Source of the DNA: an uncultured Bacteroidales bacterium | GTDB taxonomy: Bacteria > Bacteroidota > Bacteroidia > Bacteroidales > Muribaculaceae | DNA: 64,000 bases | Assembly: GCA_902792895.1 (NCBI GenBank) | Contig: CADBBK010000003.1 | Span: forward strand, 1-64,000 | Reading direction: 5' to 3' | In this document: in pieces, positions 1 to 60,918 of the stretch | How positions within the stretch are numbered: the stretch's first letter is position 1 | How the letters are laid out: the number at the start of each line of letters is the position of its first letter | Notes under the pieces: model-generated | Database searches by the model: none | What the model saw: only the letters and a program-made list of their open reading frames with translations | What the model was told of the DNA's origin: nothing | Made by a program: the position numbers and the translations under genes

Positions 1-1602
1 CCCACGGGCAGCGGCGCCTATGGCAGCGACATCCTGCGTGCCGTCAAGTTCTTCGGCTATAACAGCGAGACGGCTGAGATCTATTACAAATACTCCTATA
101 ACAACAACACGTGGGCTGCCATGATTCAGGAGGAACTGGTCAACAACCGACCCATCGTGTATTGCGGCTATGACAGTTATGCCGGAGGCCATGCCTTCAA
201 CGTTGATGGCTATGACGCTTCAGACGACACTTACCACATCAACTGGGGCTGGAGCGGTGATTACAACTGCTACTGTGCGCTCAATGCCTTTACCGATGGT
301 GAATATAACTTCACTGAAGACCAGCAGATGGTCATCGGTATCCAGCCGCCCTATCTGGGCCCGACGATTACTGCCAGCGCCCTGAACATGGCCATCGAGT
401 CCTATGCCGAGAAGTCGGCTACGCAGGTGCTCTCGGTCTTCGGCTATTATCTGGACCATGATGTGACCGTTACCCTCGACGACCCCAATGGTGTCTTCTC
501 GATTGACGTTAACCATATCGCCTTGAGCGAGGTCGAGAGCGGAAAGGACATCACCATTACCTATGCTCCTCAGGAGGTGGGCACCCACAATGCCACCATC
601 ACGCTGAGCAGCGAGAATGCCGAGGACGTTGTCGTCAACATCGTGGGCACCTCGGTGTTTGAGACCCACGATCCCGTGATGCTCGAGGCCAATGAGGACT
701 TCATCCACCTCACCGGGTTCCGAGCCGACTGGACCGATGAGACTCCTGCCAAGAATGTAGAGAGCTACACTCTCGAGGTGGCTACCAAGGCCATCACCGC
801 TCTGCTGGGCGAAACCGACTGGAGTGACCTCACCTATCAGAGCAGCAGTGTGATTTCCCACTGGCAGGACTATTTCCCCGAGGGCTGGGAGTATCAGGGT
901 AGCCAGCTCTTCACCGGCAATGGCTGCCTCCAGCTGGGTTCTGGCGGTGCCATCATCTCTCCCGAATATGATTTGACGGGTTATGACAAGGTCACCGTCA
1001 AGATGCGCGCCAAGGGTTATAATTCGTGGTACAACTCGGGTGTAACCATCTCTACTAGCCTGCAATCCGTGCATGTGGACCTTGGCACCCAGTTCACCGA
1101 TTATGTCTTCGTCCTGGATTGCACTGACATCGAGCGGATTACCATCCGTGGCGACTACTATCCCAACAATTATGGCGAGATCGAGAGCATTCAGATTTAT
1201 GCCGGCGATGCCAGTGAGCCTCGCTTGACAGCGGCCAGCGAGCAGGGCGATGCCACCTACCGCCTGATTACAGGCATCACCCCCGATAAATTCTACAACG
1301 TTGAGAATCTGACTCCTGGCGGCACCTTCTTCTTCAGGGTGATGGCCCACTACACCGATGACACCTGGAGCGCTTGGAGCAAGGCCAAGACCGTTGTGCT
1401 CAAGGGTGAAGGCCACGGTTTTGCGTTGGGCGACGTTAATCATGACGGCATGGTCGACATCAGCGATGTGACCGATCTCATTGACTACCTGCTTGACCCG
1501 TCGATGGAAATCTGCTTGACATGTGCCGACCTCGATGGTGATGGCGAAGCCTCCATTGCCGATGTGACGGCGCTCATCGACAAGCTGCTGACTGAGGAAT
1601 AA
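1..1602 (+). CDS. C10 family (streptopain-like) protease with dockerin-like C terminus, 5' partial
   Basis: Secreted cysteine protease of MEROPS family C10. The reading frame is open from base 1, so the gene starts left of the window; the internal ATG at 121 is not the true start. The signal peptide, propeptide and catalytic Cys are missing. Visible are the catalytic His in GGHAFNVDGYD (His at residue 64 of the fragment) and the INWGWSG motif that completes the active site in streptopain. Then come an Ig-like domain (nt 360-650), an FN3 domain (about nt 670-1410) split by a beta-rich type A insert (about nt 784-1210), and two Ca-loop repeats at nt 1428-1599 (DVNHDG, DLDGDG). First of six tandem paralogues on this strand. 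Family assignment is firm; substrate and the dockerin partner are unknown. Confidence 0.93.
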   Translation, partial: PTGSGAYGSDILRAVKFFGYNSETAEIYYKYSYNNNTWAAMIQEELVNNRPIVYCGYDSYAGGHAFNVDGYDASDDTYHINWGWSGDYNCYCALNAFTDGEYNFTEDQQMVIGIQPPYLGPTITASALNMAIESYAEKSATQVLSVFGYYLDHDVTVTLDDPNGVFSIDVNHIALSEVESGKDITITYAPQEVGTHNATITLSSENAEDVVVNIVGTSVFETHDPVMLEANEDFIHLTGFRADWTDETPAKNVESYTLEVATKAITALLGETDWSDLTYQSSSVISHWQDYFPEGWEYQGSQLFTGNGCLQLGSGGAIISPEYDLTGYDKVTVKMRAKGYNSWYNSGVTISTSLQSVHVDLGTQFTDYVFVLDCTDIERITIRGDYYPNNYGEIESIQIYAGDASEPRLTAASEQGDATYRLITGITPDKFYNVENLTPGGTFFFRVMAHYTDDTWSAWSKAKTVVLKGEGHGFALGDVNHDGMVDISDVTDLIDYLLDPSMEICLTCADLDGDGEASIADVTALIDKLLTEE

Positions 1603-1640
1603 ACACCTGATTGTTCATCTTTTTGCCTTGCTAGAGAAGG

Positions 1641-1670
1641 GGCGGGTGGCTGCGGCCACCTGCCTTTTTT
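1641..1670 (+). terminator. Rho-independent terminator after the first C10 gene
   Basis: A 10-bp stem (GGCGGGTGGC with GCCACCTGCC, one G-U pair), loop TGCG, followed by six T. Confidence 0.85.
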
Positions 1671-1758
1671 GGTGCATTGGCATTTTGTCGGTCCACGGCT
1701 CTAGTAACTAGCTTTTTTCATGGTTTTTGCTGCGATAGGTCGCATTTTACCGAAATTA

Positions 1759-1790
1759 TTTGTATGATTGTGAATTAGTGTATAATTTTG
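1759..1790 (+). promoter_or_regulatory. Bacteroidetes-type promoter of the second C10 gene
   Basis: TTTG at 1759-1762, 20-nt spacer, TAATTTTG at 1783-1790: a full match to the Bacteroidetes -33/-7 consensus. It leaves a leader of about 75 nt before the ATG at 1872. Confidence 0.75.
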
Positions 1791-1871
1791 CATCATCAAT
1801 CTGAATTGATTCCGGCATAAACCTGACAATAATTGTGTATGTCCTTAATATTAACTATAAATTTTGTATTT

Positions 1872-4241
1872 ATGAAAAAAATGTTATTCCTTGCCGCACT
1901 GATGTTGGCGGCTTTCCAGGCCCTGGCAGGCAACATCGACGTGAACACCGCCCAGAGCTCAGCTGTACGTTTCCTGCAGAGTCGCGCCACTAGGGGTGCC
2001 ATGACGGCTCCCACCGTGAAGTGGACCCACGAGGTGAAGTCCTCGATCGCAACTCAGGCAGCTTACTACATTGTGAACACTGACTGTGGCTATGTCATCG
2101 TTGCTGGCGACGACCGTGCCCGTGAGATTCTCGCCTATGGCGAAGGTCAGCTCACTAACCTGAACGACCTGCCCGAGGCTATGCAGATGTTCCTGGACAT
2201 GTACCAGAAGCAGATGGAATACCTTCAGGCCCATCCCGGACTGGTGGTGCAGAAGGGTATTAACCGTGGCGGCGTGTCGGTAGGCCCGCTGCTGACCACC
2301 GCTTGGAACCAGGGCAAGCCTTACAATATGAAGACCCCCAAGAAGGGTTCTGGTCAGGATCCCTATTGCAAGGTGGGCTGTTCGGCAGTAGCCCTGGCTC
2401 AGGTGATGAGGTACTGGGAATATCCCAAGGTGTCTCCCGCTCTTCCTGGCTACACCTGCCCGACCTCTGGCTATGTCATCGAAGACCTGCCCGAATACAC
2501 CTTTGATTGGGCCAACATGCGTGATTCTTACCCCAGCAGTTCGAGTGGTATCGACCAGATTCCCGATGCGCAGATTGACGCCATCAGCTGGTTCATGCGC
2601 TATGTGGGCCAGGCCGAGACCATGGATTACGGTTTGGACAAGAGCGGTGCAGAGCGCGAGGAAATCATGCAGGCCCTGCGCACGTTTGGTTATCGTGATG
2701 CCCACGTGATTGAGAAGTGGGACTTCGACGATGGTACCGTCAACTACACCGAGGAGGAATGGGGTGAGCTGATCCAGTCCGAGCTGCTCGCTGGCCGTCC
2801 TCTGATTTATTGCGCCTTTGATATGTCGAGCGACTCCACCGGTATCGGTGGCCACGCCTTCAATGTCGACGGCTATGACGCCACCACCGACATGTACCAC
2901 GTGAACTTCGGTATGAGTGCCGAGAAGAACACCTACTACGCACTCAACGGTTTCACCCTTGACAATGGCATGACGGTCTATGACTTCTTCCCCATCCTGT
3001 TTGCCGACGTGCAGGATCCCACCCTCACGACCGAGCCCCGCATCTACACATCGACCGATGCCCTCAGCATGGAGTGCTACGCTGGTGAGACCACTACCGC
3101 AACGCTCAATGTTACTGGTGCTAACCTGACTGGTGACATTACCCTTGCCTTGAGCGATGCTGATGGCGTGTTCAGCATTGATGCCACCACGATTGCTCTT
3201 GCTGATGTTGCCAATGGAGCCGTCACTGTAACCTATGCTCCCCAGGCTGTTGGCACCAACAATGCCACCATCACCCTGAGCAGCGAGGGCGCTCCTGATG
3301 TGACCGTTAACTTGACGGGTACCGCCACGGCCGCTCCCCTCGTGGTCTATGACCCCGTGATGCTCCCCGCCGATGAGAGCAAGATCACAGCTACCTCGTT
3401 CCGCGCCGACTGGACCGACCAGACCGTTGCTCAAAACGTGACCAGCTACACCCTCGAGGTGAAGGAGAAACCCAGCACCGGTGGCTTGATTGCCGAGGCC
3501 GACTGGAGCAACGTGCCCTCGTCGGGCGGTGCTGATAGCTACCTGCCTGAGGGCTGGACCGTTGGCCCGTATGGCATCTATTGCGAGGGTGGCAGCATCT
3601 CTATCACCAGCGACAGCTGGATCAGGACCAATACGCTCGAGATTGGTACCGACAAGGTGACCGTGGTGTTCAAGGCCAAGAACTACTACACCTGGACCGC
3701 ATCGGCCCTGACGGTAAAGACCAGCGTTGACTCGAAGTATTTTGAGCTCACCAATGACTTCGTTGAGTACACCGTAGTTCTGAACTGCAACGAGAATGAC
3801 CAGATCGAGTTCTTCTCCAACACCTATTATCCCATGCTCCAGTATGTGAAGATCTACTCTGGTGAGGTGACCGCGCCGCAGCTGCGTGCCGAGGAGGGCA
3901 ATGAGACCTATCGTCTGATTACCGGCATCACCGACAAGTTCTACACCGTGAACAACCTGCTTGCCGAGGGCACCTTCGACTACCGTGTGAAGGCGCTCTA
4001 CACCGATGGCACCGAGAGCGCTTGGAGCAACAAGGAGACTGTGACGCTCGTTGGCGGCACTGTCATGTTGGGTGACGTGGATGACGACGGCGAGATCGGC
4101 ATCTCGGATGTTTCGGCCCTCGTTGACTATCTGCTGGACACTAGCAACACGATCAACCTGGCTAACGCCGACGTGGACGAAGACGGTGAGATTGGCATCT
4201 CGGACGTTTCCGCTCTGGTGGATATGCTGTTGGGTAACTGA
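1872..4241 (+). CDS. C10 family protease, dockerin-like C terminus, altered NFGM active-site motif
   Basis: Secreted C10 cysteine protease of 789 aa. The start was chosen at ATG 1872 because a signal peptide (MKKMLFLAALMLAAFQALA) begins there. Order: streptopain-type propeptide/inhibitor region (about 20-130), catalytic domain with Cys170 in KVGCSAVALAQ and His328 in GGHAFNVDGYD, Ig-like domain (about 390-490), FN3 (493-729) split by a type A insert (about 533-673), dockerin-like repeats (732-789). Odd: where four of its paralogues in the window keep NWGWSG this copy reads NFGMSAEKN, so both Trp are lost while the Asn is kept. It may have altered or reduced activity. It has its own promoter and terminator. 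Confidence 0.93.
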   Translation: MKKMLFLAALMLAAFQALAGNIDVNTAQSSAVRFLQSRATRGAMTAPTVKWTHEVKSSIATQAAYYIVNTDCGYVIVAGDDRAREILAYGEGQLTNLNDLPEAMQMFLDMYQKQMEYLQAHPGLVVQKGINRGGVSVGPLLTTAWNQGKPYNMKTPKKGSGQDPYCKVGCSAVALAQVMRYWEYPKVSPALPGYTCPTSGYVIEDLPEYTFDWANMRDSYPSSSSGIDQIPDAQIDAISWFMRYVGQAETMDYGLDKSGAEREEIMQALRTFGYRDAHVIEKWDFDDGTVNYTEEEWGELIQSELLAGRPLIYCAFDMSSDSTGIGGHAFNVDGYDATTDMYHVNFGMSAEKNTYYALNGFTLDNGMTVYDFFPILFADVQDPTLTTEPRIYTSTDALSMECYAGETTTATLNVTGANLTGDITLALSDADGVFSIDATTIALADVANGAVTVTYAPQAVGTNNATITLSSEGAPDVTVNLTGTATAAPLVVYDPVMLPADESKITATSFRADWTDQTVAQNVTSYTLEVKEKPSTGGLIAEADWSNVPSSGGADSYLPEGWTVGPYGIYCEGGSISITSDSWIRTNTLEIGTDKVTVVFKAKNYYTWTASALTVKTSVDSKYFELTNDFVEYTVVLNCNENDQIEFFSNTYYPMLQYVKIYSGEVTAPQLRAEEGNETYRLITGITDKFYTVNNLLAEGTFDYRVKALYTDGTESAWSNKETVTLVGGTVMLGDVDDDGEIGISDVSALVDYLLDTSNTINLANADVDEDGEIGISDVSALVDMLLGN

Positions 4242-4267
4242 TAACATACCACACTGACCGATTGATC

Positions 4268-4305
4268 CGGGGCCTGGGCGCTGCAAGCGCTTGGGCCCCG
4301 TTTTT
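4268..4305 (+). terminator. Rho-independent terminator after the second C10 gene
   Basis: A 14-nt stem pair (CGGGGCCTGGGCGC / GCGCTTGGGCCCCG, with wobble pairs), loop TGCAA, followed by five T. Confidence 0.85.
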
Positions 4306-4382
4306 CTTGTCATGCTTGCTGCCCTGCAATGAGCATAATGAAAGAATTAACCGATTTCGGTTAGAAAAAAGCTATGAAAGTG

Positions 4383-4411
4383 TTGCAAATGGCATTTTAT
4401 TTATAACTTTG
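4383..4411 (+). promoter_or_regulatory. Probable promoter of the third C10 gene
   Basis: TTG at 4383-4385 and TAACTTTG at 4404-4411, spacer 18 nt (slightly short). Leader about 80 nt before ATG 4497. Confidence 0.55.
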
Positions 4412-4496
4412 CAGGCGCTTTTCGTTGCAAAACGACAATTGCGATAATTGTTGTGACGATTTACCATTTTCAATAAACTATCAAAATCAAGCATTT

Positions 4497-6866
4497 ATGA
4501 AGAAATTACTGTTGATTGTAGCCCTGTTGTTGGGCGCTTTGCAGCTCTCGGCGGCCGACGTAAGTCCGGTTCAGGCCCGGGCAGCAGCCGAGCGTTTTTT
4601 GCAGAGTGACGTAAAGGGAAAGAATTTTGGCGCCATGCCTGCTTCGGGAGTCAAACTGCTCTACACCGAGATGAACTCCACCCAGGCCGACAAAGCCGTG
4701 TACTACATCTTTAACTCCGAGTTGGGGTTTGTCATCGTCTCGGGCGATGACCGTGCCCACCAGATTCTTGCCCACGGCGACCGCCCGCTGGACTTGAAGC
4801 GTATGCCCGAAAACATGAAGTTCTGGCTCAGCACCTACAAGCGCCAGCTGGAGTACCTGCAGGCCCATCCGGGACTGGCCGTTGAGTTGCCCAAGCTGAA
4901 AAGCGGCCAACGTGCTGACAAGGTTGAGCCGATGCTCACTGCCGAGTGGGACCAGGACGCCCCCTATTACAACCACTGCCCCACCTATGGCGGCTCATAC
5001 TGCCTGACGGGTTGCCCCGCCACCTCGCTGTCGATGGTGTTCTACTACTGGAAGTTCCCCACCGACCCGACACCTCCCGTCGAGGGCTATACCAACGAGA
5101 GCTATGGTTTTCAAGTGCCTGCGCTGCCGTCCATCACCTTTGACTGGGACAACATGCTCGACAAGTACACCAGCGGCTACACCACCGCTCAGGCCGATGC
5201 CGTGGCATGGCTGATGCGCTACGTGGGCCAGGAGGAGCACATGGACTACACGCCCAGCGGTAGCGGTGCCATGGGCGCTGACATCCTGCGTGCGGTCGAG
5301 TTCTTCGGCTACGATGAGGAGATGGCCCGTCTGGAGTTCAAGACGCGCACCGACGACTATGCCAACGACACAGCGGTCTATTACACCGACGAGGAGTGGG
5401 CTGCTATGCTCCAACAGGAGATGTACGAGGGCCGTCCCGTGGTTTACTGCGCCTATGACTACTCCTATTGGGGCTGGAGCGGACACGCCTTCAATGTCGA
5501 CGGTTACAATCCTGCCGACGCTACCTACCATGTGAATTGGGGATGGAGCGGCGACGGTAACGGTGACTTTGTCCTCAATGCTTTCTCTAGTGGTGGCTAC
5601 AACTTCACCATCGAGCAGCAGATGATTATGGGTATCCAGCCGCCTCCCCAAGGCCCTGGCATCAAGGTAAACCGTACTAAGCTCGACATCGAAGCCCTTG
5701 TCGGCAAGACCGCCACAGCTACATTTACCGTCAAGGGACACGAACTCACTAACGACATCACCCTGACACTCAATGATGCCGACGGAGCCTTCTCGCTTGA
5801 CGCCACTACGGTGGCTGTCGCCGACCAAGAGGAAGGAAAAGTCATCACCGTGACCTACGCTCCTCAGGCCAGCGGCCAGCACACGGCCACCATCACCCTG
5901 TCCAGCCCTGATGTTGACGACAAGGTGGTGACAATCAATGGTGTGGCTGCGCTGGAAACCTATCTCCCCAATCTGCTCCCCGCCAACGAGGCCTTTATTG
6001 ACCTGACGCAGTTCCGTGCCGACTGGACCGACGAGACACCGGTTGAGAATGTCGAGAGCTACACCCTGGAGGTGGCTACGCGACCTGCAGTCGAGCTGCT
6101 CGACTCCATCGATGGCAGCATCTATCCCGGCAGCTACGAGAACATGACGCTCACTGAGCCCTGGAGCGGCAACGGCGTCAAGTGCGGCCACGATGCGGTA
6201 TATTTCAGCAACTACGACCTGGACGGCTTCATCGCCTTTACCGTGCCCGATGGCTATACCGACGACGTGTTCACGATGCAGATTACGACCGTCAGCGACT
6301 ATTACGGCAGCGGCAATCTCACGGTTGGTTCCGACCAGACGGCGCCCGTTGGCCACCAGTTCACCAGCGGTCAGACCTATACTTGGCTGGTAACCGCCAG
6401 CGCCGGTGAGAAAATCACTATCACCTCGACCGATAACTACTTCTCGCCTGACATGAGCATGATTAGGGTCTATGCTGGTGATGTCAACGAGCTGAATACG
6501 CTCAGGGGCGAAGAGGGTGATGCCAATTATCGCCTGATCACGGATATTACAGGATTGTCCTATACCGTGAAGAACCTTGCCGAGGCAGGTACTTTCTACT
6601 ACAAGGTGAAGGCTATCTATACCGATGGCACTCAGAGCCGTTGGAGCAACACTCAGCGGGTGACCTTGCTGGCTGGCAGCGGCCACATGCTGGGTGACGT
6701 GAACCACGACGGCGAGGTGAGCATCGAGGATGTGAGCCTGCTCATCGACTACCTGATGACTGACGATGAGGCTGGCGTGTGCCTGACCTGTGCCGACATC
6801 AACGGTGATGGCGAGGTGAGCATTGGCGATGTCAGCGCCTTGATTGACAAGCTGCTCACGCTCTAG
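4497..6866 (+). CDS. C10 family protease with dockerin-like C terminus (type B FN3 insert)
   Basis: Secreted C10 protease, 789 aa. Start at ATG 4497, where the signal peptide MKKLLLIVALLLGALQLSAA begins; the open frame upstream lacks coding character. Propeptide about 21-130; catalytic Cys173 in TGCPATSLSMVFYYW, His330 in SGHAFNVDGY, then VNWGWSG. Ig-like domain about 395-485. The FN3 (489-726) is interrupted at about 528-664 by a type B module (TLTEPWSGNGVK ... GNLTVGSDQT ... TYTWLVTASAGEKITI ... IRVYAGD), unlike the type A module of its two upstream neighbours but close to both modules of the C10 gene at 42219-45686. Dockerin-like repeats (DVNHDG, DINGDG) lie at 730-789. Followed by a strong terminator. 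Confidence 0.94.
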   Translation: MKKLLLIVALLLGALQLSAADVSPVQARAAAERFLQSDVKGKNFGAMPASGVKLLYTEMNSTQADKAVYYIFNSELGFVIVSGDDRAHQILAHGDRPLDLKRMPENMKFWLSTYKRQLEYLQAHPGLAVELPKLKSGQRADKVEPMLTAEWDQDAPYYNHCPTYGGSYCLTGCPATSLSMVFYYWKFPTDPTPPVEGYTNESYGFQVPALPSITFDWDNMLDKYTSGYTTAQADAVAWLMRYVGQEEHMDYTPSGSGAMGADILRAVEFFGYDEEMARLEFKTRTDDYANDTAVYYTDEEWAAMLQQEMYEGRPVVYCAYDYSYWGWSGHAFNVDGYNPADATYHVNWGWSGDGNGDFVLNAFSSGGYNFTIEQQMIMGIQPPPQGPGIKVNRTKLDIEALVGKTATATFTVKGHELTNDITLTLNDADGAFSLDATTVAVADQEEGKVITVTYAPQASGQHTATITLSSPDVDDKVVTINGVAALETYLPNLLPANEAFIDLTQFRADWTDETPVENVESYTLEVATRPAVELLDSIDGSIYPGSYENMTLTEPWSGNGVKCGHDAVYFSNYDLDGFIAFTVPDGYTDDVFTMQITTVSDYYGSGNLTVGSDQTAPVGHQFTSGQTYTWLVTASAGEKITITSTDNYFSPDMSMIRVYAGDVNELNTLRGEEGDANYRLITDITGLSYTVKNLAEAGTFYYKVKAIYTDGTQSRWSNTQRVTLLAGSGHMLGDVNHDGEVSIEDVSLLIDYLMTDDEAGVCLTCADINGDGEVSIGDVSALIDKLLTL

Positions 6867-6914
6867 TGAAACTTCAGCAAGGGGCAAGGCCCTGAAGAAT
6901 TGAGAACTTTCTGC

Positions 6915-6957
6915 CAAGCGGGACAAAGAAGAATCATCTTTTTGTCCCGCTTGTTTT
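6915..6957 (+). terminator. Rho-independent terminator after the third C10 gene
   Basis: A 13-bp perfect stem (CAAGCGGGACAAA / TTTGTCCCGCTTG) with a 13-nt loop, followed by TTTT. Confidence 0.8.
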
Positions 6958-6999
6958 CGAAAAATAGGGCAATTATGCGGTAAAACAGCTTTTTATTGT

Positions 7000-7007
7000 T
7001 ACCTTTG
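7000..7007 (+). promoter_or_regulatory. -7 element of the fourth C10 gene
   Basis: TACCTTTG followed by C, 78 nt before ATG 7086. No convincing TTTG element lies at the expected -33 distance, so only half of the promoter is supported. Confidence 0.4.
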
Positions 7008-7085
7008 CACTTTTCCATGTAGTAACTGATGCCTATCACTGCTCATGAAAACCATTATCAAACTAAAACCATTATTAGATCTTAT

Positions 7086-9476
7086 ATGAGAAGATTTTAT
7101 TTGCTCGCCATGTTGCTGCTGGCTTTCACTCAGGTGGAAGCAGCCAGCGTCGATTTGGCGACTGCTCAGGCCACTGCCCAGCGTTTTGCGTTGGGCCGGC
7201 CTTCGAACCATCAATTCCAGGGCAACGCGCCAGGTGCTGTGAAGTTGATTTACACCGAGGTTAATTCCCGCCATCCCCAGCAGGCGGCCTATTACATCTT
7301 CAATACCGAGTGCGGTTTTGTCGTCGTCGCCGGTGATGATCGTGCCCAGGCCGTATTGGCCCATGGTGACCGTCAGCTGGACATGAACCGCATGCCCGAC
7401 AACATGAGCTGTTGGCTCAGCCAGTACAAGCGTCAGCTCGAGTTCCTGCAGGACCGACCTGACCTTGTGGTAGACAAGCCTTACCACAGTCAGCGTATGT
7501 CGCCACCCACCATCCAGCCGCTGCTCACTGCCGAGTGGGACCAGGCTGAGCCCTATTGGAACCACTGCCCGGTGTATAACGGTGACACCTGCCTGACCGG
7601 GTGCCCCGCCACCTCGCTGTCGATGGTGTTCTATTACTGGAAATATCCCACCGGGCCCACGCCCGAGGTGGACAGCTACATCAATCTGGGTACTAGCTCA
7701 CGCCTGCCTGCCTTGCCGTCAACCACTTTTGACTGGGACAACATGCTGGATCAATACATCGAGGGCAATTACACCGACGAGCAGGCCGATGCTGTGGCTT
7801 GGCTGATGCGCTACATCGGTCAGGAAGAGCACATGGACTACACGCCCGACGGCAGCGGTGCACAGGGCAGCGACATCCTGCGTACCGTCAAGTTTTTCGG
7901 CTATGATGATGGTGCCGAACTGGTGACCAAGTCGTTTGACGATACCTTTGGCAACGAGACGGTGCTCATCAGCGATGCTGATTGGGCCGAGATGCTGTTG
8001 ACCGAGCTTGTCGAGGGCCGCCCCGTGGTGTATTGCGCCTTTGACTACAAGAGTGACAAGGGTTGGACTGGCCACGCCTTCAATGTAGATGGCTATGATG
8101 CCGCCGACAATACTTATCACGTGAACTGGGGTTGGAGTGGCGTCGGCAATGGTAACTTTGCGCTGAACGCTTTCAGCTACGCCGGTTATACGTTCAATCT
8201 CGAGCAGCAGATGGTCATCGGCATCCAGCCTCCAGTGACCACCCCGACTATCAGGGTATCGCCCTTCCAGGTCGAGATGAATGCCTATGTGGACCAGAGC
8301 GCCACGGCAACCATCAACGTGATGGGTTTGCGTCTGCTTGACGGCGTGACGTTGACGCTGCACGATGAGGCTGGCGTGTTCTCCCTGGACCAGACCAGCA
8401 TCACTGTCGATGATGCCGAAGAGGGCAAATTGGTCACCGTGACCTATTCGCCCACGGCCAGTGGCCAGCACACTGCTACCATCGTGCTGTCCAGCCCTGA
8501 TGCCGAAGATGTTACCGTGGCCGTCAGCGGAAATGCAGTGCTCGATGTCCACACGCCCGAATTGATGACGCCCGAGGCCAATGACATCGGTCTGACGCAG
8601 TTCCGCGCATCGTGGCTCGACGCTACCGATGCCAAGTATGTGTCTGATTACACCCTCGAGGTGGCTACCAAGCCCGGCACCACGCTGGTGGGAGAAGCCG
8701 ACTGGAGCAATCTTGTAGAGAACACGTCGAACTGTGCCGAGAACTGGCAACCGCTCATGCCCGAGGGATGGTCATTTGTCGGAACAGGCCTGTGGCATGA
8801 GAACGGAGGTATATCGATTAACAACAAGAGCCAGATTGTCACCCCGACCTATGACCTGGCAGGTTACGAGAAGGTGACGGTGGTGGTGACCGCCAAATCG
8901 TCGATGAGCCAGAGCAGCTCCAAGTTCACTGTTTCGACCGACGCCCAGAGCATGGAGTTCTCAGCTGCGGGTGGCACACCGTTCACACCCTATGTCGCTG
9001 TACTTGATTGCAACGATCTGGACCAGGTGGCCATTGCGGGCAAGAGCAATTTCCCCATCTTCCAAAGCATATTGGTCTATGCCGGCGAACTGGATGAGCC
9101 CACCTTGCGCGACGTTGTTGAGCAGGGTGATGCCGACAGCCGGTTGATTACAGGCATTACCGATAAGCATTACACCGTGGCAGGCCTCAATGCGGAAGGC
9201 ACCTTCTACTACAGGGTGATGGCCCACTACATCGACGGCACCCAGAGCCCGTGGAGCAAGAGCTTCATCGTTACCCTGGCCGAGGGCAGCCACAGCATGG
9301 GTGACGTGGACCACAACGGCAGCGTGGACATCGCCGACGTGAGCCTGCTGATCGACTACCTGCTGAGTGGTGACGGTGATGCTGTGTGTCCCGCCTGTGC
9401 CGACGTGGACAACAGCGGTATTGCCGACATCGCCGATGTGACTGCACTCATCGACCGCCTGCTCATCGGGCAGTAG
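7086..9476 (+). CDS. C10 family protease with dockerin-like C terminus
   Basis: Secreted C10 protease, 796 aa from ATG 7086 (MRRFYLLAMLLLAFTQVEA signal peptide). Propeptide about 20-130 with the conserved YYIFNTECGFVVVAGDDRA stretch; catalytic Cys173 in TGCPATSLSMVFYYW and His330 in TGHAFNVDGYD, followed by VNWGWSG. An Ig-like domain follows. The FN3 (about 489-735) holds a type A insert (about 528-673: PEGWSFVGTG ... YDLAGYEKVTVVV ... YVAVLDCNDLDQVAI ... ILVYAGE). Dockerin-like pair (DVDHNG, DVDNSG) at 736-796. The second Ca loop has Ser in place of the Asp/Asn-Gly pattern seen in its sisters. No terminator is obvious behind it, so read-through into the next gene is possible. Confidence 0.94.
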   Translation: MRRFYLLAMLLLAFTQVEAASVDLATAQATAQRFALGRPSNHQFQGNAPGAVKLIYTEVNSRHPQQAAYYIFNTECGFVVVAGDDRAQAVLAHGDRQLDMNRMPDNMSCWLSQYKRQLEFLQDRPDLVVDKPYHSQRMSPPTIQPLLTAEWDQAEPYWNHCPVYNGDTCLTGCPATSLSMVFYYWKYPTGPTPEVDSYINLGTSSRLPALPSTTFDWDNMLDQYIEGNYTDEQADAVAWLMRYIGQEEHMDYTPDGSGAQGSDILRTVKFFGYDDGAELVTKSFDDTFGNETVLISDADWAEMLLTELVEGRPVVYCAFDYKSDKGWTGHAFNVDGYDAADNTYHVNWGWSGVGNGNFALNAFSYAGYTFNLEQQMVIGIQPPVTTPTIRVSPFQVEMNAYVDQSATATINVMGLRLLDGVTLTLHDEAGVFSLDQTSITVDDAEEGKLVTVTYSPTASGQHTATIVLSSPDAEDVTVAVSGNAVLDVHTPELMTPEANDIGLTQFRASWLDATDAKYVSDYTLEVATKPGTTLVGEADWSNLVENTSNCAENWQPLMPEGWSFVGTGLWHENGGISINNKSQIVTPTYDLAGYEKVTVVVTAKSSMSQSSSKFTVSTDAQSMEFSAAGGTPFTPYVAVLDCNDLDQVAIAGKSNFPIFQSILVYAGELDEPTLRDVVEQGDADSRLITGITDKHYTVAGLNAEGTFYYRVMAHYIDGTQSPWSKSFIVTLAEGSHSMGDVDHNGSVDIADVSLLIDYLLSGDGDAVCPACADVDNSGIADIADVTALIDRLLIGQ

Positions 9477-9700
9477 ACAACATTCAAGGCAATGATATGG
9501 CAGTTGACCTATTGATTTTTCTTTTCAATGCTAATTTCGCTAATTGGGCGAACCTCACGAAGAAATAACACCATTCGTCATCATTCGTTAAATTCGTGAA
9601 ATGGGCATTACCCCCGCAGGGCTTGGGCCAACTGCTATATCGTTATACAATCCAATCACTGAAATACCAAGAATCATTAACTATTTAAACAAGTGACGTT
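9477..9700. other. Intergenic stretch with an ATTCG-type repeat
   Basis: 224 bases between the fourth and fifth C10 genes. Unlike the other gaps in the array it shows neither a clear hairpin terminator nor a TAnnTTTG promoter. It contains ATTCGTTAAATTCGTGAAAT at 9583-9602, related to a second copy at 35789-35814 on the minus strand. Confidence 0.4.
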
Positions 9701-11809
9701 ATGAAAAGAATCATTATCATCATGGCAGCGCTCCTGGCAGTGCTGCAACTCACGGCCGCCGACATCGACATGCAGACGGCACAGGCCAAGGCTCAACGCT
9801 TCCTGGCCGGCAAGGCCACCAAGAACGGCTTTGCTGCCAAGCCCGCTGTCAAGTGGGTACACCAGGAAATGAATTCCTCCAATGCTAGCCAGGCTGCCTA
9901 CTACATTGTCAACACCGACCAGGGATTTGTCATTGTGGCCGGTGATGACCGTGCACAGGAAATCCTGGGCTATGGCTCTGGGACCATTGACATGAACACC
10001 ATGCCCGAGAACATGAAGGTGTGGCTGGGTTATTACAAGGCTCAGCTGGAGTACCTGCAGGCCCATCCCGGCATGATTGTCGAGAAGCCCGCCCGTCGCG
10101 GCGGCGTGACTGTAGCGCCGATGGTCGAGGCCATGTGGGACCAGGGCTCGCCCTATTATTCCCAGTGCCCTATAACGGGCGACGTGCGCGCCCAGACCGG
10201 CTGCGCCGCCACCTCGCTGGCCCAGGTGTTCTACAAGTGGAAATTCCCCACCAACCCCACTCCCGTTATCCCCGGTTACACGACGGCTACATTGGGCCTC
10301 GAGCTTGGTGCGCTCCCCTCAGTGACCTTTGACTGGGAGAATATGCTGCCCACCTACAACTTCGGCCACTACAATGACGTGAACAAGAACGCCGTAGCCC
10401 AGCTGATGCGCTACATCGGCCAGGCCGAGCACATGGACTACAACAGCACCTTTGGCGAGGCCTATGAGGAGGATATCCTCAGGGCTTGCCACACCTTCGG
10501 CTACGTTGATGCACACATTGCCTACAAGTCGATTCTCTATGCCAATGGCGTTGACAGCGTCTACATCGGTGACGACGAGTGGAGTGAGATGCTCCAGAAC
10601 GAGCTCATCGCCGGCCGCCCCGTGGTTTATTGCGCGATTTCCTACAGTTCGGTCTATAACAGCTACTACGGCCATGCCTTCAATGTCGATGGTTATAATG
10701 CCGAGGACGGCACCTACTCCATCAACTGGGGCTGGAGCGGCGTTGGTAACGGCTACTTCGCCCTCAACGCATTTGCTAACCAGGGTAACAGCTACACCCT
10801 GGGCCAGCTGATGGTGATGGGCATTGAGCCCCCTGCTCCCGTCGAGTCCTATGACCCCGTGATGCTTCGCGCCAACGAGCGCTACATCGATCTGACCTCG
10901 TTCCGTGCCGAGTGGACCGACGAGACGCCTGACGAGAACGTCGTGAGCTACACCCTCGAGGTGGCTGCCGAAGGTGGAGACCCCGGCGTGTATGAGAAAA
11001 AGTTCAGTGAGTCCTTCCCCTACTGCAATAGCTCCAGCAACACAGCAATCAGCAATTTCAACAACTATTGTGCTAATGCGGGTTGGACGGGTACACGCGC
11101 CTATGAGGCAAAGGGTGGCTTGCGCCTGGGCAATGCCGACCGCAGTGGTTCCATCACCACGCCGGCATTGGATATGACGCAAAGCGGCGGCAAGATGACT
11201 GTTGTTGCCAGCATGAAGCCCTACAACAACGACACTAATGTGCCTGTCACCATCTCCTGCGGTACCAGCATCGCCAACGTTACGGTGACTGCCGAGGGCA
11301 CCCAGACCGTAATCCTGGAGTGTGAGGCCGATGAGAACCAGAAAGTGACCTTCTCGACTGTTGAGGGCGGCAAGCGCGTGATCATCACCCAGGTGGACAT
11401 CTACAGCTCCACCCCCAGCTCAAGCAAGAAACTGTTCTCGCTGCGTGCCGAGGAAGGTGACGCCAACTCACGCGTCATTACCGATATCACCGACAAGTTC
11501 TACACTGTGAATGGTCTGGCTGAGGGCGGTACCTTCACCTACAGGGTAAAAGCCTACTACATCAATGGCACCCAGAGCGCTTGGAGCAACGTTGAGACGG
11601 TAACGCTGCATGAGTCCCAGCATCAGCATCAACCCGGTGATGTGGATAAAGATGGCAGCGTGGGCATTTCCGACGTGAGCCTCCTGATCGACTACCTGCT
11701 GGGAACCGAGATCGGTGACTTCTGCGGTACTTGTGGCGACGTGGATGCCGATGGCAGCGTGGCTATCGCTGACGTGAGTGTCTTGATTGACATCCTGCTC
11801 GGCAATTGA
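9701..11809 (+). CDS. C10 family protease, shorter form lacking the Ig-like domain (type C insert)
   Basis: Secreted C10 protease of 702 aa, about 90-100 aa shorter than its neighbours. Signal peptide MKRIIIIMAALLAVLQLTAA; propeptide about 21-125; Cys168 in TGCAATSLAQVFYKW; His325 in YGHAFNVDGY; then INWGWSG. Directly after the protease (MGIEPPAPVESYDPVML) the FN3 begins at about 381, so the Ig-like domain of the other paralogues is absent. The FN3 insert (about 422-580: FSESFPYCNSS ... GSITTPALDM ... VIITQVDIYS) is a third type, not resembling the A or B modules. Dockerin-like repeats (DVDKDG, DVDADG) at 645-702. No clear promoter of its own; possibly co-transcribed with the gene before it. 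Confidence 0.93.
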   Translation: MKRIIIIMAALLAVLQLTAADIDMQTAQAKAQRFLAGKATKNGFAAKPAVKWVHQEMNSSNASQAAYYIVNTDQGFVIVAGDDRAQEILGYGSGTIDMNTMPENMKVWLGYYKAQLEYLQAHPGMIVEKPARRGGVTVAPMVEAMWDQGSPYYSQCPITGDVRAQTGCAATSLAQVFYKWKFPTNPTPVIPGYTTATLGLELGALPSVTFDWENMLPTYNFGHYNDVNKNAVAQLMRYIGQAEHMDYNSTFGEAYEEDILRACHTFGYVDAHIAYKSILYANGVDSVYIGDDEWSEMLQNELIAGRPVVYCAISYSSVYNSYYGHAFNVDGYNAEDGTYSINWGWSGVGNGYFALNAFANQGNSYTLGQLMVMGIEPPAPVESYDPVMLRANERYIDLTSFRAEWTDETPDENVVSYTLEVAAEGGDPGVYEKKFSESFPYCNSSSNTAISNFNNYCANAGWTGTRAYEAKGGLRLGNADRSGSITTPALDMTQSGGKMTVVASMKPYNNDTNVPVTISCGTSIANVTVTAEGTQTVILECEADENQKVTFSTVEGGKRVIITQVDIYSSTPSSSKKLFSLRAEEGDANSRVITDITDKFYTVNGLAEGGTFTYRVKAYYINGTQSAWSNVETVTLHESQHQHQPGDVDKDGSVGISDVSLLIDYLLGTEIGDFCGTCGDVDADGSVAIADVSVLIDILLGN

Positions 11810-11841
11810 AATAATTCTTAAGAATTAAACCCCTATTGTTT

Positions 11842-11880
11842 CCCGTTATGGCTGAATGACTGGTCATAACGGGATTTGTT
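11842..11880 (+). terminator. Rho-independent terminator after the fifth C10 gene
   Basis: A 9-bp perfect stem (CCCGTTATG / CATAACGGG), 14-nt loop, followed by a T-rich stretch (ATTTGTTTT). Confidence 0.7.
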
Positions 11881-11937
11881 TTACTGGAAAACAGGAAAGT
11901 GCCATTTTCGTCTTTTTAATATTTATTGCAAAAATAG

Positions 11938-11968
11938 TTGCATTTTTGCGTTGATTGGTGTAATTTTG
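11938..11968 (+). promoter_or_regulatory. Promoter of the sixth C10 gene
   Basis: TTG at 11938-11940, 20-nt spacer, TAATTTTG at 11961-11968. Leader about 100 nt before ATG 12078. Confidence 0.7.
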
Positions 11969-12077
11969 CGACTGTTTTAAGGCTGGCTCAGGCCATTGCT
12001 TGCATATTTTTACATTATTTACAAGCTGAAGCGTGACTATATTAACTTAATAACCAATATATTACATTAACAGTTAT

Positions 12078-14504
12078 ATGAGAAGATTCTTATTATGTGC
12101 CGCAGTGATTCTGGCGGCGATTCAGTTGTCGGCATCTCCTGTCGATCTGAGGCAAGCGCAAATGAAGGCGCAGAAATTCGTTGCACAGAAATTGTATGGC
12201 GGCACCCTGCGTGCACCCATTGCTGGCGAAATGAAGTTGGCCCATGCCGAGATGAACTCCACGCAGCAAGGCCTGGTAGCGTATTACATCTTTAATTCGG
12301 CCAACGGCTATGTGATTGTGTCGGGTGACGACCGTGCCGAGGAAATCCTGGGCTACGGCGATGCTCCGCTGGACATCAACGCGATTCCTTGCAACATGCG
12401 TGCTTGGCTGGCTACCTACAAGGAGCAGTTGGAATACCTGCAGGCCCATGAGGGAATGCAGGTCGAGACGCCCTCGATGATGGCTCCCTCGTTGCGCATC
12501 GAGTCAGTGGCTCCGCTGCTGACCGCCAATTGGGACCAGGAGGCCCCCTACTGGAAGCAGTGTGTCATCAATGGCAACCAGTGCTTGACGGGCTGCCCGG
12601 CCACGTCGGCAGCGATGGTGTTCTATTATTGGAAGTATCCCGATTTCGAGACCCCTGAGGTGCCCGCTTATCGCTGTGAGCTCTCCACCTCGTTTTGGGG
12701 TGGTTCCTCCTATGTCAACGTTGCTGCTCTGCCCCCTGTGACCTTTGACTGGGACAACATGCTCGACAACTATAACAGCAGTTACAATAATGCCCAGGCT
12801 AATGCTGTGGCCACGCTGATGCGTTACATCGGTCAGGCCGAGCACATGGCCTATGGCACGAGTGCTGCCGGCGGTAGCGGCGTGAATGCCGACAGTGTGA
12901 GCCTGATTTCCGATGCATTCAAGTTCTTCGGCTATGATGAGGAAACCGTGCGCATGGTCAAGAAGACCAGCGCCTATAGTGGCGGCACGACACTCTATAG
13001 CGATGCCGAGTGGGCAGCCTTGATTCAAGAGGAACTCGCCGAGAGCCGTCCCATCGTGTTCTGCGCCATCGCTAGCGGTTACTATGGCGGTGGCCATGCC
13101 TTCAACATCGACGGTTATGATGCCACCACCAACAAGTACCACATCAACTTCGGCTGGAGTGGCTCCAGCAATAACTACTATGCGTTGAACGCCTTCAACG
13201 GCGGCGGCTCGACTTACAACCAGTACCAGCAGATGGTCATTGGCATCCAGCCCCCGATGAAGATTCCGCGCCTGACAACGACGCCCAACGAGCTCGCGAT
13301 GTCCTGTTTCAAGAACCACACCGATACGGCCGAATTCACCGTGAAGGGCCGTAACCTTGAGGGTGACGTGACGCTGACACTGCAGGACGAGAACGGCGTG
13401 TTCATCCTTCCCGAGGCTGCCGTCACTCCTGATGAGGATGGCAAGGTGGAGAATACCTTCACCGTGGTCTATGCTCCCAAGGCCGAGGGCGAGTATGTGG
13501 GCACGGTTACCGTGAGCACTCCTGGCGTTGAAGACTATGTAATCACGCTTCACGGCACATCGGTATATGAACTGTACCGTCCCGTGATGCTGGCTCCCAA
13601 TGAGCAGTACGTTACTGCTACCTCGTTCCGCGCCGAGTGGAGCGACAATACCCCCGCCGAGAATGTCGTCAGCTACACCCTTGAGGTGCGCAACAAGCCT
13701 GACGTATCGCTGCTTGCCGAGGCTGACTGGAGCGAGGTGCCCGATGAGTCGCTCAACCATGCCAGCGACGTACAGAACTACCTGCCCGAGGACTGGACCT
13801 TCACGGGCAACAACTTCTATCTGAACGGCGGCTTCGTGTCCACCAACCGTGGTGCTGTCCTCAACCCCAACTGTGATCTGACCGGTTACAACATGGTAAG
13901 CGTAATCGTAGTCGGTAAGGCTTACGAACGTGCTACCTCCAGTACGATTGACATCAGCACCGATGTTGAAACCAAGACCATCGTTCTGCCCAGGGATGTG
14001 GACACCTGTCTGGTAGTGCTTGAGGTGGGCGCAAACCAAACGCTCAAGCTCACAACCGGCTACTATCCCAATATCCAGAAGATCAAAATCTATGGTGGTG
14101 AGATTGCTAATGCTGAGCCCTTTGCACTCAGGGCCAATGAGACGGGCAATGGCGACTTACTGTTGATCGAGGGCATCACCCCCGACAAGTTCTACGACGT
14201 GCGCAATCTGACCGCAGGCGCTCCCTACCTGTATCGCGTGAAGTCATTCTATGTCAATGGCACGGAGAGCTCCTGGAGCAACAGCAAGGAAGTACTGCTC
14301 CTGCAGGGCGAGACCGTCAAGGGTGACGTGAATGGCGACGGTGTGATTGACATCATGGATGCTTCACTGCTCGTCGACTATCTGCTGGCTGGCGCTGGCA
14401 ATGTCAACCTCAGCGCTGCCGACGTGAATGGTGACGGTGAGGTCAGCGTGGGCGATGCTGCCATGCTTGTCGACTACCTGCTTGCAGGTTCTTGGCCCCG
14501 TTAA
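12078..14504 (+). CDS. C10 family protease with dockerin-like C terminus
   Basis: Secreted C10 protease, 808 aa, last of the tandem array. Signal peptide MRRFLLCAAVILAAIQLSA. Propeptide about 20-130; Cys173 in TGCPATSAAMVFYYW; His340 in GGHAFNIDGYD; the following motif is INFGWSG (first Trp replaced by Phe, second kept). A short insertion before the His (TSAAGGSGVNADSVSLI) is shared with the detached C10 gene at 42219-45686, suggesting that these two are closest relatives in the catalytic domain. Ig-like domain about 395-490; FN3 497-744 with a type A insert (about 537-683); dockerin-like pair (DVNGDG twice) at 747-808. A 16-bp hairpin follows at 14532. Confidence 0.94.
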   Translation: MRRFLLCAAVILAAIQLSASPVDLRQAQMKAQKFVAQKLYGGTLRAPIAGEMKLAHAEMNSTQQGLVAYYIFNSANGYVIVSGDDRAEEILGYGDAPLDINAIPCNMRAWLATYKEQLEYLQAHEGMQVETPSMMAPSLRIESVAPLLTANWDQEAPYWKQCVINGNQCLTGCPATSAAMVFYYWKYPDFETPEVPAYRCELSTSFWGGSSYVNVAALPPVTFDWDNMLDNYNSSYNNAQANAVATLMRYIGQAEHMAYGTSAAGGSGVNADSVSLISDAFKFFGYDEETVRMVKKTSAYSGGTTLYSDAEWAALIQEELAESRPIVFCAIASGYYGGGHAFNIDGYDATTNKYHINFGWSGSSNNYYALNAFNGGGSTYNQYQQMVIGIQPPMKIPRLTTTPNELAMSCFKNHTDTAEFTVKGRNLEGDVTLTLQDENGVFILPEAAVTPDEDGKVENTFTVVYAPKAEGEYVGTVTVSTPGVEDYVITLHGTSVYELYRPVMLAPNEQYVTATSFRAEWSDNTPAENVVSYTLEVRNKPDVSLLAEADWSEVPDESLNHASDVQNYLPEDWTFTGNNFYLNGGFVSTNRGAVLNPNCDLTGYNMVSVIVVGKAYERATSSTIDISTDVETKTIVLPRDVDTCLVVLEVGANQTLKLTTGYYPNIQKIKIYGGEIANAEPFALRANETGNGDLLLIEGITPDKFYDVRNLTAGAPYLYRVKSFYVNGTESSWSNSKEVLLLQGETVKGDVNGDGVIDIMDASLLVDYLLAGAGNVNLSAADVNGDGEVSVGDAAMLVDYLLAGSWPR

Positions 14505-14531
14505 TCAGGGCTGACATAATACCCTAGTTTA

Positions 14532-14572
14532 CATCGAGGGGTGTGCCTTTTATGACGGCGCACCCCTCGATG
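14532..14572 (+). terminator. Strong hairpin closing the C10 array
   Basis: CATCGAGGGGTGTGCC pairs with GGCGCACCCCTCGATG (16 bp, one G-U), loop 9 nt. No T run follows, so termination is inferred from its position only. Confidence 0.55.
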
Positions 14573-14643
14573 CTATCGTACGTAAGGCTCGTGGCGACGA
14601 GGAGTCAAAAAGCCTCCTACTTGGGAATTTTTCATCAAATTAT

Positions 14644-42218: not shown

Positions 42219-45200
42219 TTAACGGACGACCTTAGTGCTCTTGACAGCACCGCTGCGGTAGCGGGTTACCACAATGTTGATGCCGTCCCAAGGCTCCTTG
42301 CTCTGAACGCCCGACATGTTGACATAGGTTACCGACTCAACCTCGTCCTCATCGGTGGCAATCGAGTTGATGGCGGTGTTGTTGCCCATGTTGATGCTGA
42401 CGAGCGTTACCTCCTGGGTGTTGCTGGTGGCGGTGGTGCCGTCAACGTAGTTGGCCACGAGGTAGATGCTGTAGGTACCACCCTCAACCAGGTTGCTCAG
42501 GGTAATGCCCGTGCTGCTGGCATCGATGTCGGTGATCACGAAGTTGGTGTTGTCACCGGTTGCAGTAGCATTGAGGTTCATCGTGCCGGCATAGATGGCG
42601 ATGTAAGCCATATCGGGCGAGTAGCTGCTGTCGGTAGAGTAGATGGTGATCTTGTCACCAGCGCTGCCGGTTACGGTCCAGGTGTAGGTCTCGCCCTTGG
42701 CGAAGCTGTGGGCCACAGCCGAAGTCTTAGCCGACTTCACGGTGATATTGCCAGAGCCATAGCTGGTGTTGGCCGTGGTAATCTGGATGGTGAAGGTGGC
42801 ATTGCTGTAACCCGACGGGATGGTGAAGGTGATGCTGCCATAGGAGGTTGACCACCACGACGAGGAGTTCTTGGTGTAGATAGCGCCATTACCTGCCTTC
42901 ACGTTGCTGCCGCCCCAAGGCGAGGTCAGCGTGATGCTGGCGTAGCTGCCGGTGTAGTTGCTGCCGTCGAGGCTGCCCAGCAAGGTGCTCGAAGGCTCGT
43001 CATCACCACTGGGCTGTGCCGTCAGCGTGCCATACAGCGAGTAGCTCGATACACTCGAGGCCGATACGTCGTGGGTCCAGTTGGCGGTGAAGCTGGTGCT
43101 GGATACTACTGTCGGTGCACTCAGCACGGGGTTAGCCTTGTCGAGCGTAGCGTTACCGGTGATGGAAACGGTCTTGCTCGTTGCGCCAGAGCTTGCTACG
43201 TTCACGGTAGCGGTCTGCGTGCCATAGGCGGTGGGCTTGTAGGTCACGGTCACGTTGACACCGTTAGCGGCATTGGCTGCCGTGATGGTGCTCGGCGAGA
43301 TGCTGAAGACGTTAGAACCACTCAGGCTGAGCGTTACATTACCAGTCAGGTCAGCACCGGTTACCTTGAAGGTAGCGGTTGACGTACCGTCAACCTTGGC
43401 GCTCATGTTCAGGCTGGTGGGCGTTACTGTCAGGGTGGGGGTAGCGGCGGGCGACTCCGTCTTGAGGGTGACGCTCTGCTCGTTGCTCCATGCGCTCGAG
43501 GTACCATCGACGTAGATGGCCTTCACCTTATAAGTATAGGTGGCGCCGGCAGTCAGGTTGCTGACGGTGTAGTACTTGTTGGTGATGCCGGTGATCGTGC
43601 GGGCGTTGGCATCGCCGGTCTCGCTGGCGTTGAGGTTGACATTGCCGGCATAGACTTGGATCAGCGACATATCGGGTGAATAGCTGCTATCGGTCGAGTA
43701 GATGGTGATGACATCGCCAGTCTTGCCAGTGACAGTCCAAGTGTAGGTCTCACCCTTTGAGAAGGAGTGGCCCACAGCCGAGGTCTGGGTGGACTTCACG
43801 GTGATGTTACCTGAACCGTAGGTACCGCTCACAGTGGTAATCTGTACGCTGAAGGTGGTGTTGCTGCTGTAACCCGAAGGAATGGTAAAGGTAATCTTAC
43901 CGGACGAGCCAGATGTGTAAACGGCATTGTTACCGCCCTTGACGTTGGTTCCGCCCCAAGGCGAGCTCAGCGTGATGGTCTTGTAGCTGCCGGTGTAGTT
44001 GCTGCCGTTGATGGTGCCCAGCAGGGTGGGGCTGGTCGACGGGGTCGAGCCACCCTCGCCGTTCACTTGCAGGGTGTAGCTGGCCACGTTGCTGCTCGTC
44101 GTCTGGTCGGTCCAGTCAGCGCGGAAGCTCGAGCTGGTGACGTAGCTGCTGTTGGCAGCGCTCATCACGGGCGTGTAGGTCGTCAGAGCGGCAGCGGTAG
44201 CAGTACCACTAAGCGAAACGGTCTTGCTGGTTGCGCCGCTGCTTGCAATCGAGATGCTGCCGGTGTGGGTGCCTGCTGCAGTGGGGTTATAGGTTACCGT
44301 AACGGTAGCCCCGCTGGCAGCAGCGCTGGCGCTGATGGTCGTCGGCGAGATGGTGTAAGCGCTGTTGGCATCGGTCTTGGTGAGCGTTACGCTGCCGGTG
44401 AGGTTGGTACCAGTAACGGTGAAGGTCTTGCTTACGGTCTGGCCAGCGGTGGTGCTGAATGACAGCGAAGTGGGGCTGACGGTCAGCGTGGGAGTAGCAG
44501 TGCTGCCACTGGGCGGCTGGATACCGATCACCATCTGCTGATAGACGTTGAAGTTATAGCTGCTGTAGCCGAAGGAGTTCAGCGAGCACCATGCATTGCC
44601 GTCGCCACTCCAACCGAAGTTGACGTGGTACTTGTTGGTGCTGCTGTTGTAGCCGTCAACGTTGAAGGCGTGTCCGCCGGCGTTGGAGCTGACGGCACAG
44701 AAGACGATGGGGCGGCCTGCGGCCATTTCCTGCTGGATCAGTGAAGCCCACTGTGAGTCGGAATAGAGCGTGGTGCCGCCGCTATAGGCGCTGGTCTTCT
44801 TGACGAAGCGCGTGGTGCTGGCGTCGTAGCCGAAGAAGGTGAACGCGTCGCGGATGTTGCAGACACTGTCCACACTCACACCGCTACCGCCAGCTGCACT
44901 CGTACCGTAACCCATGCGCTCGGCCTGGCCCACATAGTGCATCAGCGTGGCAACAGCGGTGCCCTGGGCGGTCGTGTAGCCGCTGGTGTAGTTGTCCAGC
45001 ATGTTGGCCCAGTCAAACGTGGTCGAGGGCAGGGCTGAGTGGGTATAGCTCTTGGAACCATAGCTAGAGTAGCTGATGGTGGACTTGTAGCCGGGGACAA
45101 CGGGCGTCGGGGCGGTGGGGTACTTCCAGTAGTAGAACACCATCGAGGCCGATGTGGCGGGGCAACCGGTCAGACACTGGTAGCTACCGAACTTACACTG

Positions 45201-60831: not shown

Positions 60832-60918
60832 TGTTTGCATATTCGGTATATCCTAATTATTTGAAGTTTATTCTTGTTGTGATAGCAAAATGCCACAAAT
60901 ATTACCTAAAACAGGTGA

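What the first reader, a model, noticed from the sequence alone, without database searches (positions are those of the whole stretch)
1..14504. Exchangeable modules inserted into one FN3 loop across tandem C10 proteases
In all six tandem C10 genes, and twice in the gene at 42219-45686, the FN3 domain is split after the strand ending SYTLEV and resumes at a segment like RLITGIT..FYTVKNL. Between these conserved flanks sit 130-160 residues of at least three dissimilar types: type A (genes at 1, 1872, 7086, 12078), type B (gene at 4497 and both blocks of the 42219 gene), type C (gene at 9701). All end in a strand like I.IYAG or VDIYS. This suggests a fixed socket with swapped cargo, perhaps carbohydrate- or protein-binding modules that retarget the same protease.
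Basis: partly seen in the sequence, partly recalled or inferred. Interest (0 to 1): 0.72.

Follow-up and report, generated by a model that had tools for sequence, protein, structure and literature searches.

The report
Swappable domain in rumen bacterial proteases
Related rumen bacteria carry secreted protein-cutting enzymes with a sugar-binding-like domain plugged into one loop of a support domain, and this plug appears to have been exchanged between otherwise matching enzymes, which may change what the enzymes stick to.

Summary
Six tandem C10 protease genes (the first cut by the contig edge) and the gene at 42219-45686 have an FN3 domain split at one point by 150-168 residues (8 splits). 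The flanks are one FN3: two related proteases, one in this genome, have it uninterrupted, and AlphaFold models of types A and B rebuild one FN3 from the halves. The three types are real sequence clusters (90 A, 41 B, 19 C of 150), but diverged relatives: A-C clearly, A-B probably. A and B are jelly rolls like CBMs and gingipain adhesin domains; C was not modelled. Exchange is supported: insert type needs 14-16 changes on the protease tree, one clade for B is rejected (p 0.0003), and two syntenic genes with 95% DNA identity carry A and B between like FN3 halves. Against: within a type the insert partly diverges in step with the protease, so exchange is episodic. The cassette also sits on an M6 protease and a DNase, and the C-terminal dockerin is replaced more often than the insert. 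Ligand binding and retargeting are inferred. New variant of a known kind (compare gingipain adhesin exchange).

The parts
1..1602 (+). g1: C10 protease, 5' end cut by the contig; Ig, split FN3 with type A insert, dockerin
781..1260 (+). type A insert of g1 (FN3 halves 649-780 and 1261-1401)
1872..4241 (+). g2: C10 protease, type A insert, dockerin
3462..3911 (+). type A insert of g2 (FN3 halves 3330-3461 and 3912-4052); DNA identity dips in the insert against L205, L206 and L208
4497..6866 (+). g3: C10 protease, type B insert, dockerin
6075..6530 (+). type B insert of g3 (FN3 halves 5943-6074 and 6531-6671); modelled within 5955-6680
7086..9476 (+). g4: C10 protease, type A insert, dockerin
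8664..9140 (+). type A insert of g4 (FN3 halves 8532-8663 and 9141-9281); modelled within 8544-9290
9701..11809 (+). g5: C10 protease without a detected Ig domain, type C insert, dockerin
10964..11467 (+). type C insert of g5 (FN3 halves 10832-10963 and 11468-11608)
12078..14504 (+). g6: C10 protease, type A insert, dockerin
13689..14159 (+). type A insert of g6 (FN3 halves 13557-13688 and 14160-14300)
42219..45686 (-). g7: C10 protease with two Ig + split FN3 units, both with type B inserts; no dockerin match, ends in another tail
43605..44063 (-). first type B insert of g7
42543..43028 (-). second type B insert of g7

Best explanation
A family of secreted C10 cysteine proteases of rumen Bacteroidales carries an accessory cassette: an Ig domain (usually), an FN3 domain whose loop after the SYTLEV strand holds a CBM-like jelly-roll domain, and a C-terminal module, usually a dockerin. 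The FN3 halves are a structural socket and, being conserved among paralogues and species, probably also serve as homology arms: recombination between tandem paralogues or between species replaces the jelly roll in frame and leaves the FN3 whole. The jelly roll is proposed to bind a surface ligand (a glycan or glycoprotein of feed, host or microbial surfaces), so that an exchange changes where the same kind of protease is held. Shown by computation: the socket, natural empty sockets, the fold of A and B, discordance of insert type and protease, an exchange between syntenic genes, and the cassette on two other enzymes. Inferred: homologous recombination as the route, ligand binding, and retargeting as the benefit.
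Against: Within types the insert correlates with the protease (r 0.67 A, 0.66 B, 0.92 C), and the nearest neighbour by C10 is also nearest by insert in 34 of 90, close to 38 for the propeptide and 40 for Ig. Among 121 pairs with C10 of 88% or more the insert is under 75% in 40, but so are the FN3 C-half in 43 and the propeptide in 53 of 118; at 98% or more the insert is under 75% in 0 of 35. Synonymous-site sharing is no higher within a locus than between loci, so homogenisation inside arrays is not shown in general. Nearly all the data are MAGs; the L045/L081 alleles found no independent copy in 397 genomes of the family. No binding was tested and the inserts have no sequence relatives among solved structures.
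Confidence: 0.55

Rival explanations
1. One ancestral insert diverged in place together with its protease; the three types are old paralogous lineages and no exchange occurred.
For: A, B and C look like one superfamily; within types insert and protease identities correlate, r 0.66-0.92.
Against: 14-16 changes of type on the protease tree, B as one clade rejected; the sharp dip and recovery of DNA identity in L045/L081.
Confidence: 0.08
2. The discordant genes are assembly chimaeras of short-read MAGs that joined parts of different paralogues or strains.
For: Nearly all genomes here are MAGs; the two L045/L081 alleles have no independent copy in the 397 genomes searched; window g1 is itself cut by a contig end.
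Against: The A insert of L081p231 is only 71% identical to its nearest relatives, so it is not a copy of another gene seen in that locus; the change keeps the frame and falls at the domain border; the A inserts inside the B clade recur, related, in three loci of different MAGs.
Confidence: 0.07
3. The insert varies mainly to escape recognition by host antibodies, phages or predators, and exchange is antigenic variation, not retargeting.
For: Type A inserts are more variable than their FN3 halves (mean entropy 1.93 against 1.30 and 1.33), in strands (1.90) as well as loops (1.96). Gingipain adhesin exchange was discussed partly in these terms (PMC5266723, passages).
Against: Type B inserts are less variable than their FN3 halves (1.07 against 1.29 and 1.14), which fits a kept ligand better (the A and B row sets differ in size and spread). 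The C-terminal dockerin is replaced more often than the insert, which escape alone does not predict.
Confidence: 0.2
4. The insert is a structural spacer or stabiliser without a ligand.
For: No ligand is known; two proteases do without it.
Against: The fold matches are mostly binding modules, and exchange among distinct types is not needed for a spacer.
Confidence: 0.1

Closest known systems
Gingipain Kgp/RgpA/HagA cleaved adhesin domains of Porphyromonas gingivalis (PMC5266723, passages seen)
   Different: Another protease family; there adhesins stand in series after the catalytic domain, here one sits inside an FN3 loop; here tandem arrays of C10 genes with dockerins.
CBM families 35, 36 and 6
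   Same: Jelly-roll fold.
   Different: No sequence match was found; carbohydrate binding untested; inserted in an FN3 of a protease.
Large C10 proteases of Bacteroidales (PMC2873492, passages; S24-7 genomes PMC4936053, passages)
   Same: Spi propeptide and C10 domain; long C-terminal regions described there as of undetermined role.
   Different: Here the C-terminal region is resolved into Ig, split FN3 with cargo, and dockerin or other tail.
Dockerin-cohesin complexes (cellulosomes)
   Same: Type I dockerins above the Pfam cut-off in six window genes; three cohesin matches in the genome.
   Different: Bacteroidales host, proteases as clients, few and weak cohesin matches; docking untested.

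Membership tests
Peptidase C10 | Pfam PF01640 above the curated cut-off | tested here: met
   7 of 7 genes
Peptidase C10 | Cys and His of the catalytic motifs (motif recalled) | tested here: met
   Cys in g2-g7 (g1 cut), His in all 7
Fibronectin type III domain | One FN3 fold built from both halves | tested here: met
Fibronectin type III domain | Pfam PF00041 above the gathering score | tested here: not met
   Best fn3 match in the seven window proteins 18.6 bits against 25, as expected for a split domain
CBM35/36/6 | Jelly-roll fold | tested here: met
CBM35/36/6 | Carbohydrate binding | not testable with these tools
   needs binding assays
Cleaved adhesin / choice-of-anchor J | Fold of gingipain K1/K3 | tested here: met
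Cleaved adhesin / choice-of-anchor J | Curated sequence model NF038128 | tested here: inconclusive
   1 of 76 A rows at E 0.022; the endonuclease with a C-like insert E 1.1e-4, 22.5 bits against 30
Dockerin type I | PF00404 above the cut-off | tested here: met
   g1-g6; no match in g7
T9SS type A sorting tail | TIGR04183 match of the non-dockerin tails | tested here: not met
   No NCBIfam or Pfam match of the g7 and L079 tails; g7 not among 12 own-genome matches
Invertible shufflon | Inverted repeats in the array | tested here: not met
   0 inverted pairs of 30 bases or more (seed 12) in 1-14600

The most novel reading that the evidence does not exclude
A combinatorial display system in rumen Bacteroidales: catalytic heads (C10, M6, endonuclease I), an FN3 socket that is empty or loaded with jelly roll A, B or C, and a C-terminal module (diverse dockerins or a non-dockerin tail) are reassorted among genes and species by homologous recombination, so that a population retargets and re-docks the same enzymes, the dockerin clients being held by cohesin proteins at the cell surface.
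Probability: 0.3. Interest if true: 0.78.

Novelty: new variant of a known kind. Interest (0 to 1): 0.58.

Why it matters
Nature's own rule for replacing a folded domain inside another domain (two conserved half-domains as borders) would become measurable, because alleles with different cargo and naturally empty versions exist. It also resolves the C-terminal region of large C10 proteases, whose role was described as undetermined (PMC2873492, passage), and points to dockerin-based attachment of proteases in Bacteroidales.

Tried and rejected
Solved-structure sequence search with the three fragment alignments found FN3 relatives, mostly through the C-half; a few weak hits of other kinds lie over the insert (E 0.05 or worse) and none is convincing. 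Pfam and NCBIfam named no convincing family for A or B inserts (B only against Pfam). No paper in the library holds the PDB codes 8X8H or 8WC1. Iterated HMMs of each type recruited 150, 143 and 149 of 150 inserts and were useless for typing. Third-codon and synonymous sharing gave no sign of stronger homogenisation within a locus than between loci. Family-wide DNA search for the L045 gene found the L045 (100%) and L081-like (95%) copies only, then 72% or less over comparable lengths, so no independent copy of either allele. The label 'first insert' counts ABB against BB forms of the g7 orthologues as changes, though loss of a repeat unit explains them; ABB rows were left out.

Rows dropped: one search used 133 of 136 socket proteins (3 with a short C10 match left out), labelled by first insert, 2 empties kept as a group. 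One search used 94 rows: rows at 93% or more C10 identity to a kept row of the same label, two empties, six ABB proteins and short ones were left out. Searches used single-insert proteins only. One search dropped rows at 97% or more C10 identity and rows with a short propeptide, Ig or odd tail (66 A, 17 B, 17 C, 90 together). Insert pairs under 75%: 39, 40 (rounding). Alignments A1-A3 hold 76 of 90, 35 of 41 and 17 of 19 fragments after dropping rows over 92% alike. The dockerin count of 146 is of matches, from 150 scored of 249 candidates.

Full report
WHAT IS THERE. The window is bases 1-64000 of contig C3 of an unnamed 3.2 Mb genome in 58 contigs. The 70 related loci are MAG contigs titled Muribaculaceae, Prevotellaceae, Porphyromonadaceae, Bacteroidaceae, Bacteroidales or Prevotella; where the title names a source it is a ruminant gut site, and the RUG series is, as I recall, from rumen. 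The six tandem genes and the gene at 42219-45686 (g7) are C10 proteases with a Spi propeptide (not seen in the truncated g1), an Ig domain of the choice-of-anchor D kind (not seen in g5), a split FN3, and a dockerin (g1-g6) or another tail (g7). The genome has 25 C10 matches; 12 of these proteins carry the FN3 socket, 11 loaded with 13 inserts and one empty.

EXCHANGE. On a tree of the protease domain alone (133 rows) insert type needs 16 changes; the least possible is 3 and the shuffled mean 42.5, so the label is clustered but not in one piece per type; starred branches force at least 8 for A, 6 for B and 3 for C. With a mixture model and 94 rows it needs 14 (least 2, shuffled mean 31.1), and holding the 20 B rows together costs 488 log units (p-AU 0.0003, quick tree). 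The clearest case is L045p139 (B) and L081p231 (A), at corresponding places in syntenic arrays: DNA identity is 54-60 of 60 per block until just after the SYTLEV strand, 18-37 of 51-60 inside the insert, 60/60 and 55/60 in the FN3 C-half, then falling in the dockerin. The A insert of L081p231 is 71% identical to those of the next gene in both arrays, whose protease is only about 42% identical, and 69% to two others. For the window's own g2, L205, L206 and L208 keep 80-83% (C10), 87-90% (FN3 N-half) and 74-84% (FN3 C-half) DNA identity but 52-54% in the insert; L203, L204 and L207 show a mild or no dip (65-72% in the insert) and L209 none (70%).

HOW FAR IN STEP. Within types the insert partly follows the protease (r 0.67 A, 0.66 B, 0.92 C; rho 0.31, 0.72, 0.67); over all types together rho is 0.09, against 0.59 for the propeptide and 0.55 for Ig. 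By nearest neighbour the insert agrees with C10 in 34 of 90, the propeptide in 38, Ig in 40, so exchange is episodic. In type A the FN3 halves and dockerin are decoupled from the protease (rho 0.07, 0.17, 0.07); short length is not the whole cause, since 45-column pieces of C10 keep rho 0.52-0.84 with the rest. In type C they follow it (rho 0.45-0.71). Of 121 single-insert pairs with C10 identity of 88% or more, segments under 75% are: insert 40, FN3 C-half 43, FN3 N-half 21, Ig 22, propeptide 53 of 118, dockerin 105; at 98% or more, insert 0 of 35 and dockerin 25 of 35. The insert is thus not the most divergent part in general; the change of type is the sign of exchange, and the dockerin is the most often replaced module. 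Pairs are not independent.

BEYOND C10. Two other proteins of the genome carry the loaded socket: an M6 metalloprotease with an A-like insert and an endonuclease I with a C-like insert, both with dockerins. A second endonuclease I, in the window at 54785-56509, has an Ig and an uninterrupted FN3-like domain (below the Pfam cut-off, not clearly of the socket kind).

HOW IT LIKELY WORKS. Conserved FN3 halves form direct repeats between the genes (for example D3, 132 nt, 61-77% to its reference in five genes; no inverted repeats of 30 bases or more). In-frame replacement between the same two strands keeps the FN3 whole. The jelly roll most likely binds a surface ligand, so the same kind of protease is held to another target. 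Recombination as the route, binding and benefit are inferred.

AGAINST WHAT IS KNOWN. Adhesin-domain variants not linked to catalytic-domain variants are described for the gingipain Kgp (PMC5266723, passages). Larger C10 proteins were said to have C-terminal domains of undetermined role (PMC2873492, passage). C10 homologues, M6 proteases and T9SS were noted in S24-7 genomes (PMC4936053, passages). Among the papers listed by eight library searches on these subjects (titles and abstract starts) I saw none describing an exchangeable domain inside an FN3 loop of C10 proteases; that is no proof of absence. I rate it a new variant of a known kind.

Noticed in passing
own genome (G000), whole: 146 Dockerin_1 matches (150 of 249 candidates scored) and 3 cohesin matches over the cut-off, in a Bacteroidales genome; 30 of 48 genomes of the genus have a cohesin match, 25 over the cut-off. 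A 2018 paper on rumen Bacteroidetes says no cohesins or dockerins were found, as in other Bacteroidetes (PMC5831590, passage).
   Followed up: partly
L067:6003-10150 against L078, L079, L076: L067 and L078 are 99.8% identical over 4148 bases, ending at the start of the dockerin of L067; L076, L078 and L079 instead end in a non-dockerin tail like that of window g7. Near-identical proteases thus carry different C-terminal modules in genomes held as different species.
   Followed up: partly
own genome contig C8:54000-64000 (L037): A second array with a B, an A+B and an empty-socket C10 gene; the two neighbouring B inserts are 96% identical while their C10 domains are 70% identical.
   Followed up: partly
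window 54785-56509: Endonuclease I with an Ig and an uninterrupted FN3-like domain, and a weak sub-threshold T9SS tail match.
   Followed up: partly
window 58423-60840: BspA-type leucine-rich repeat protein with a dockerin.
   Followed up: no
window 62418-63998: OPT oligopeptide transporter, which would fit use of peptides as food.
   Followed up: no
own genome C6:65051 and C6:26234 (L170, L169): Cohesin domains stand next to dockerins in the same proteins, one with leucine-rich repeats and a tail like that of g7.
   Followed up: no
window 1872-4241 (g2): g2 reads NFGMS where the other six C10 genes read NWGWS or NFGWS.
   Followed up: no
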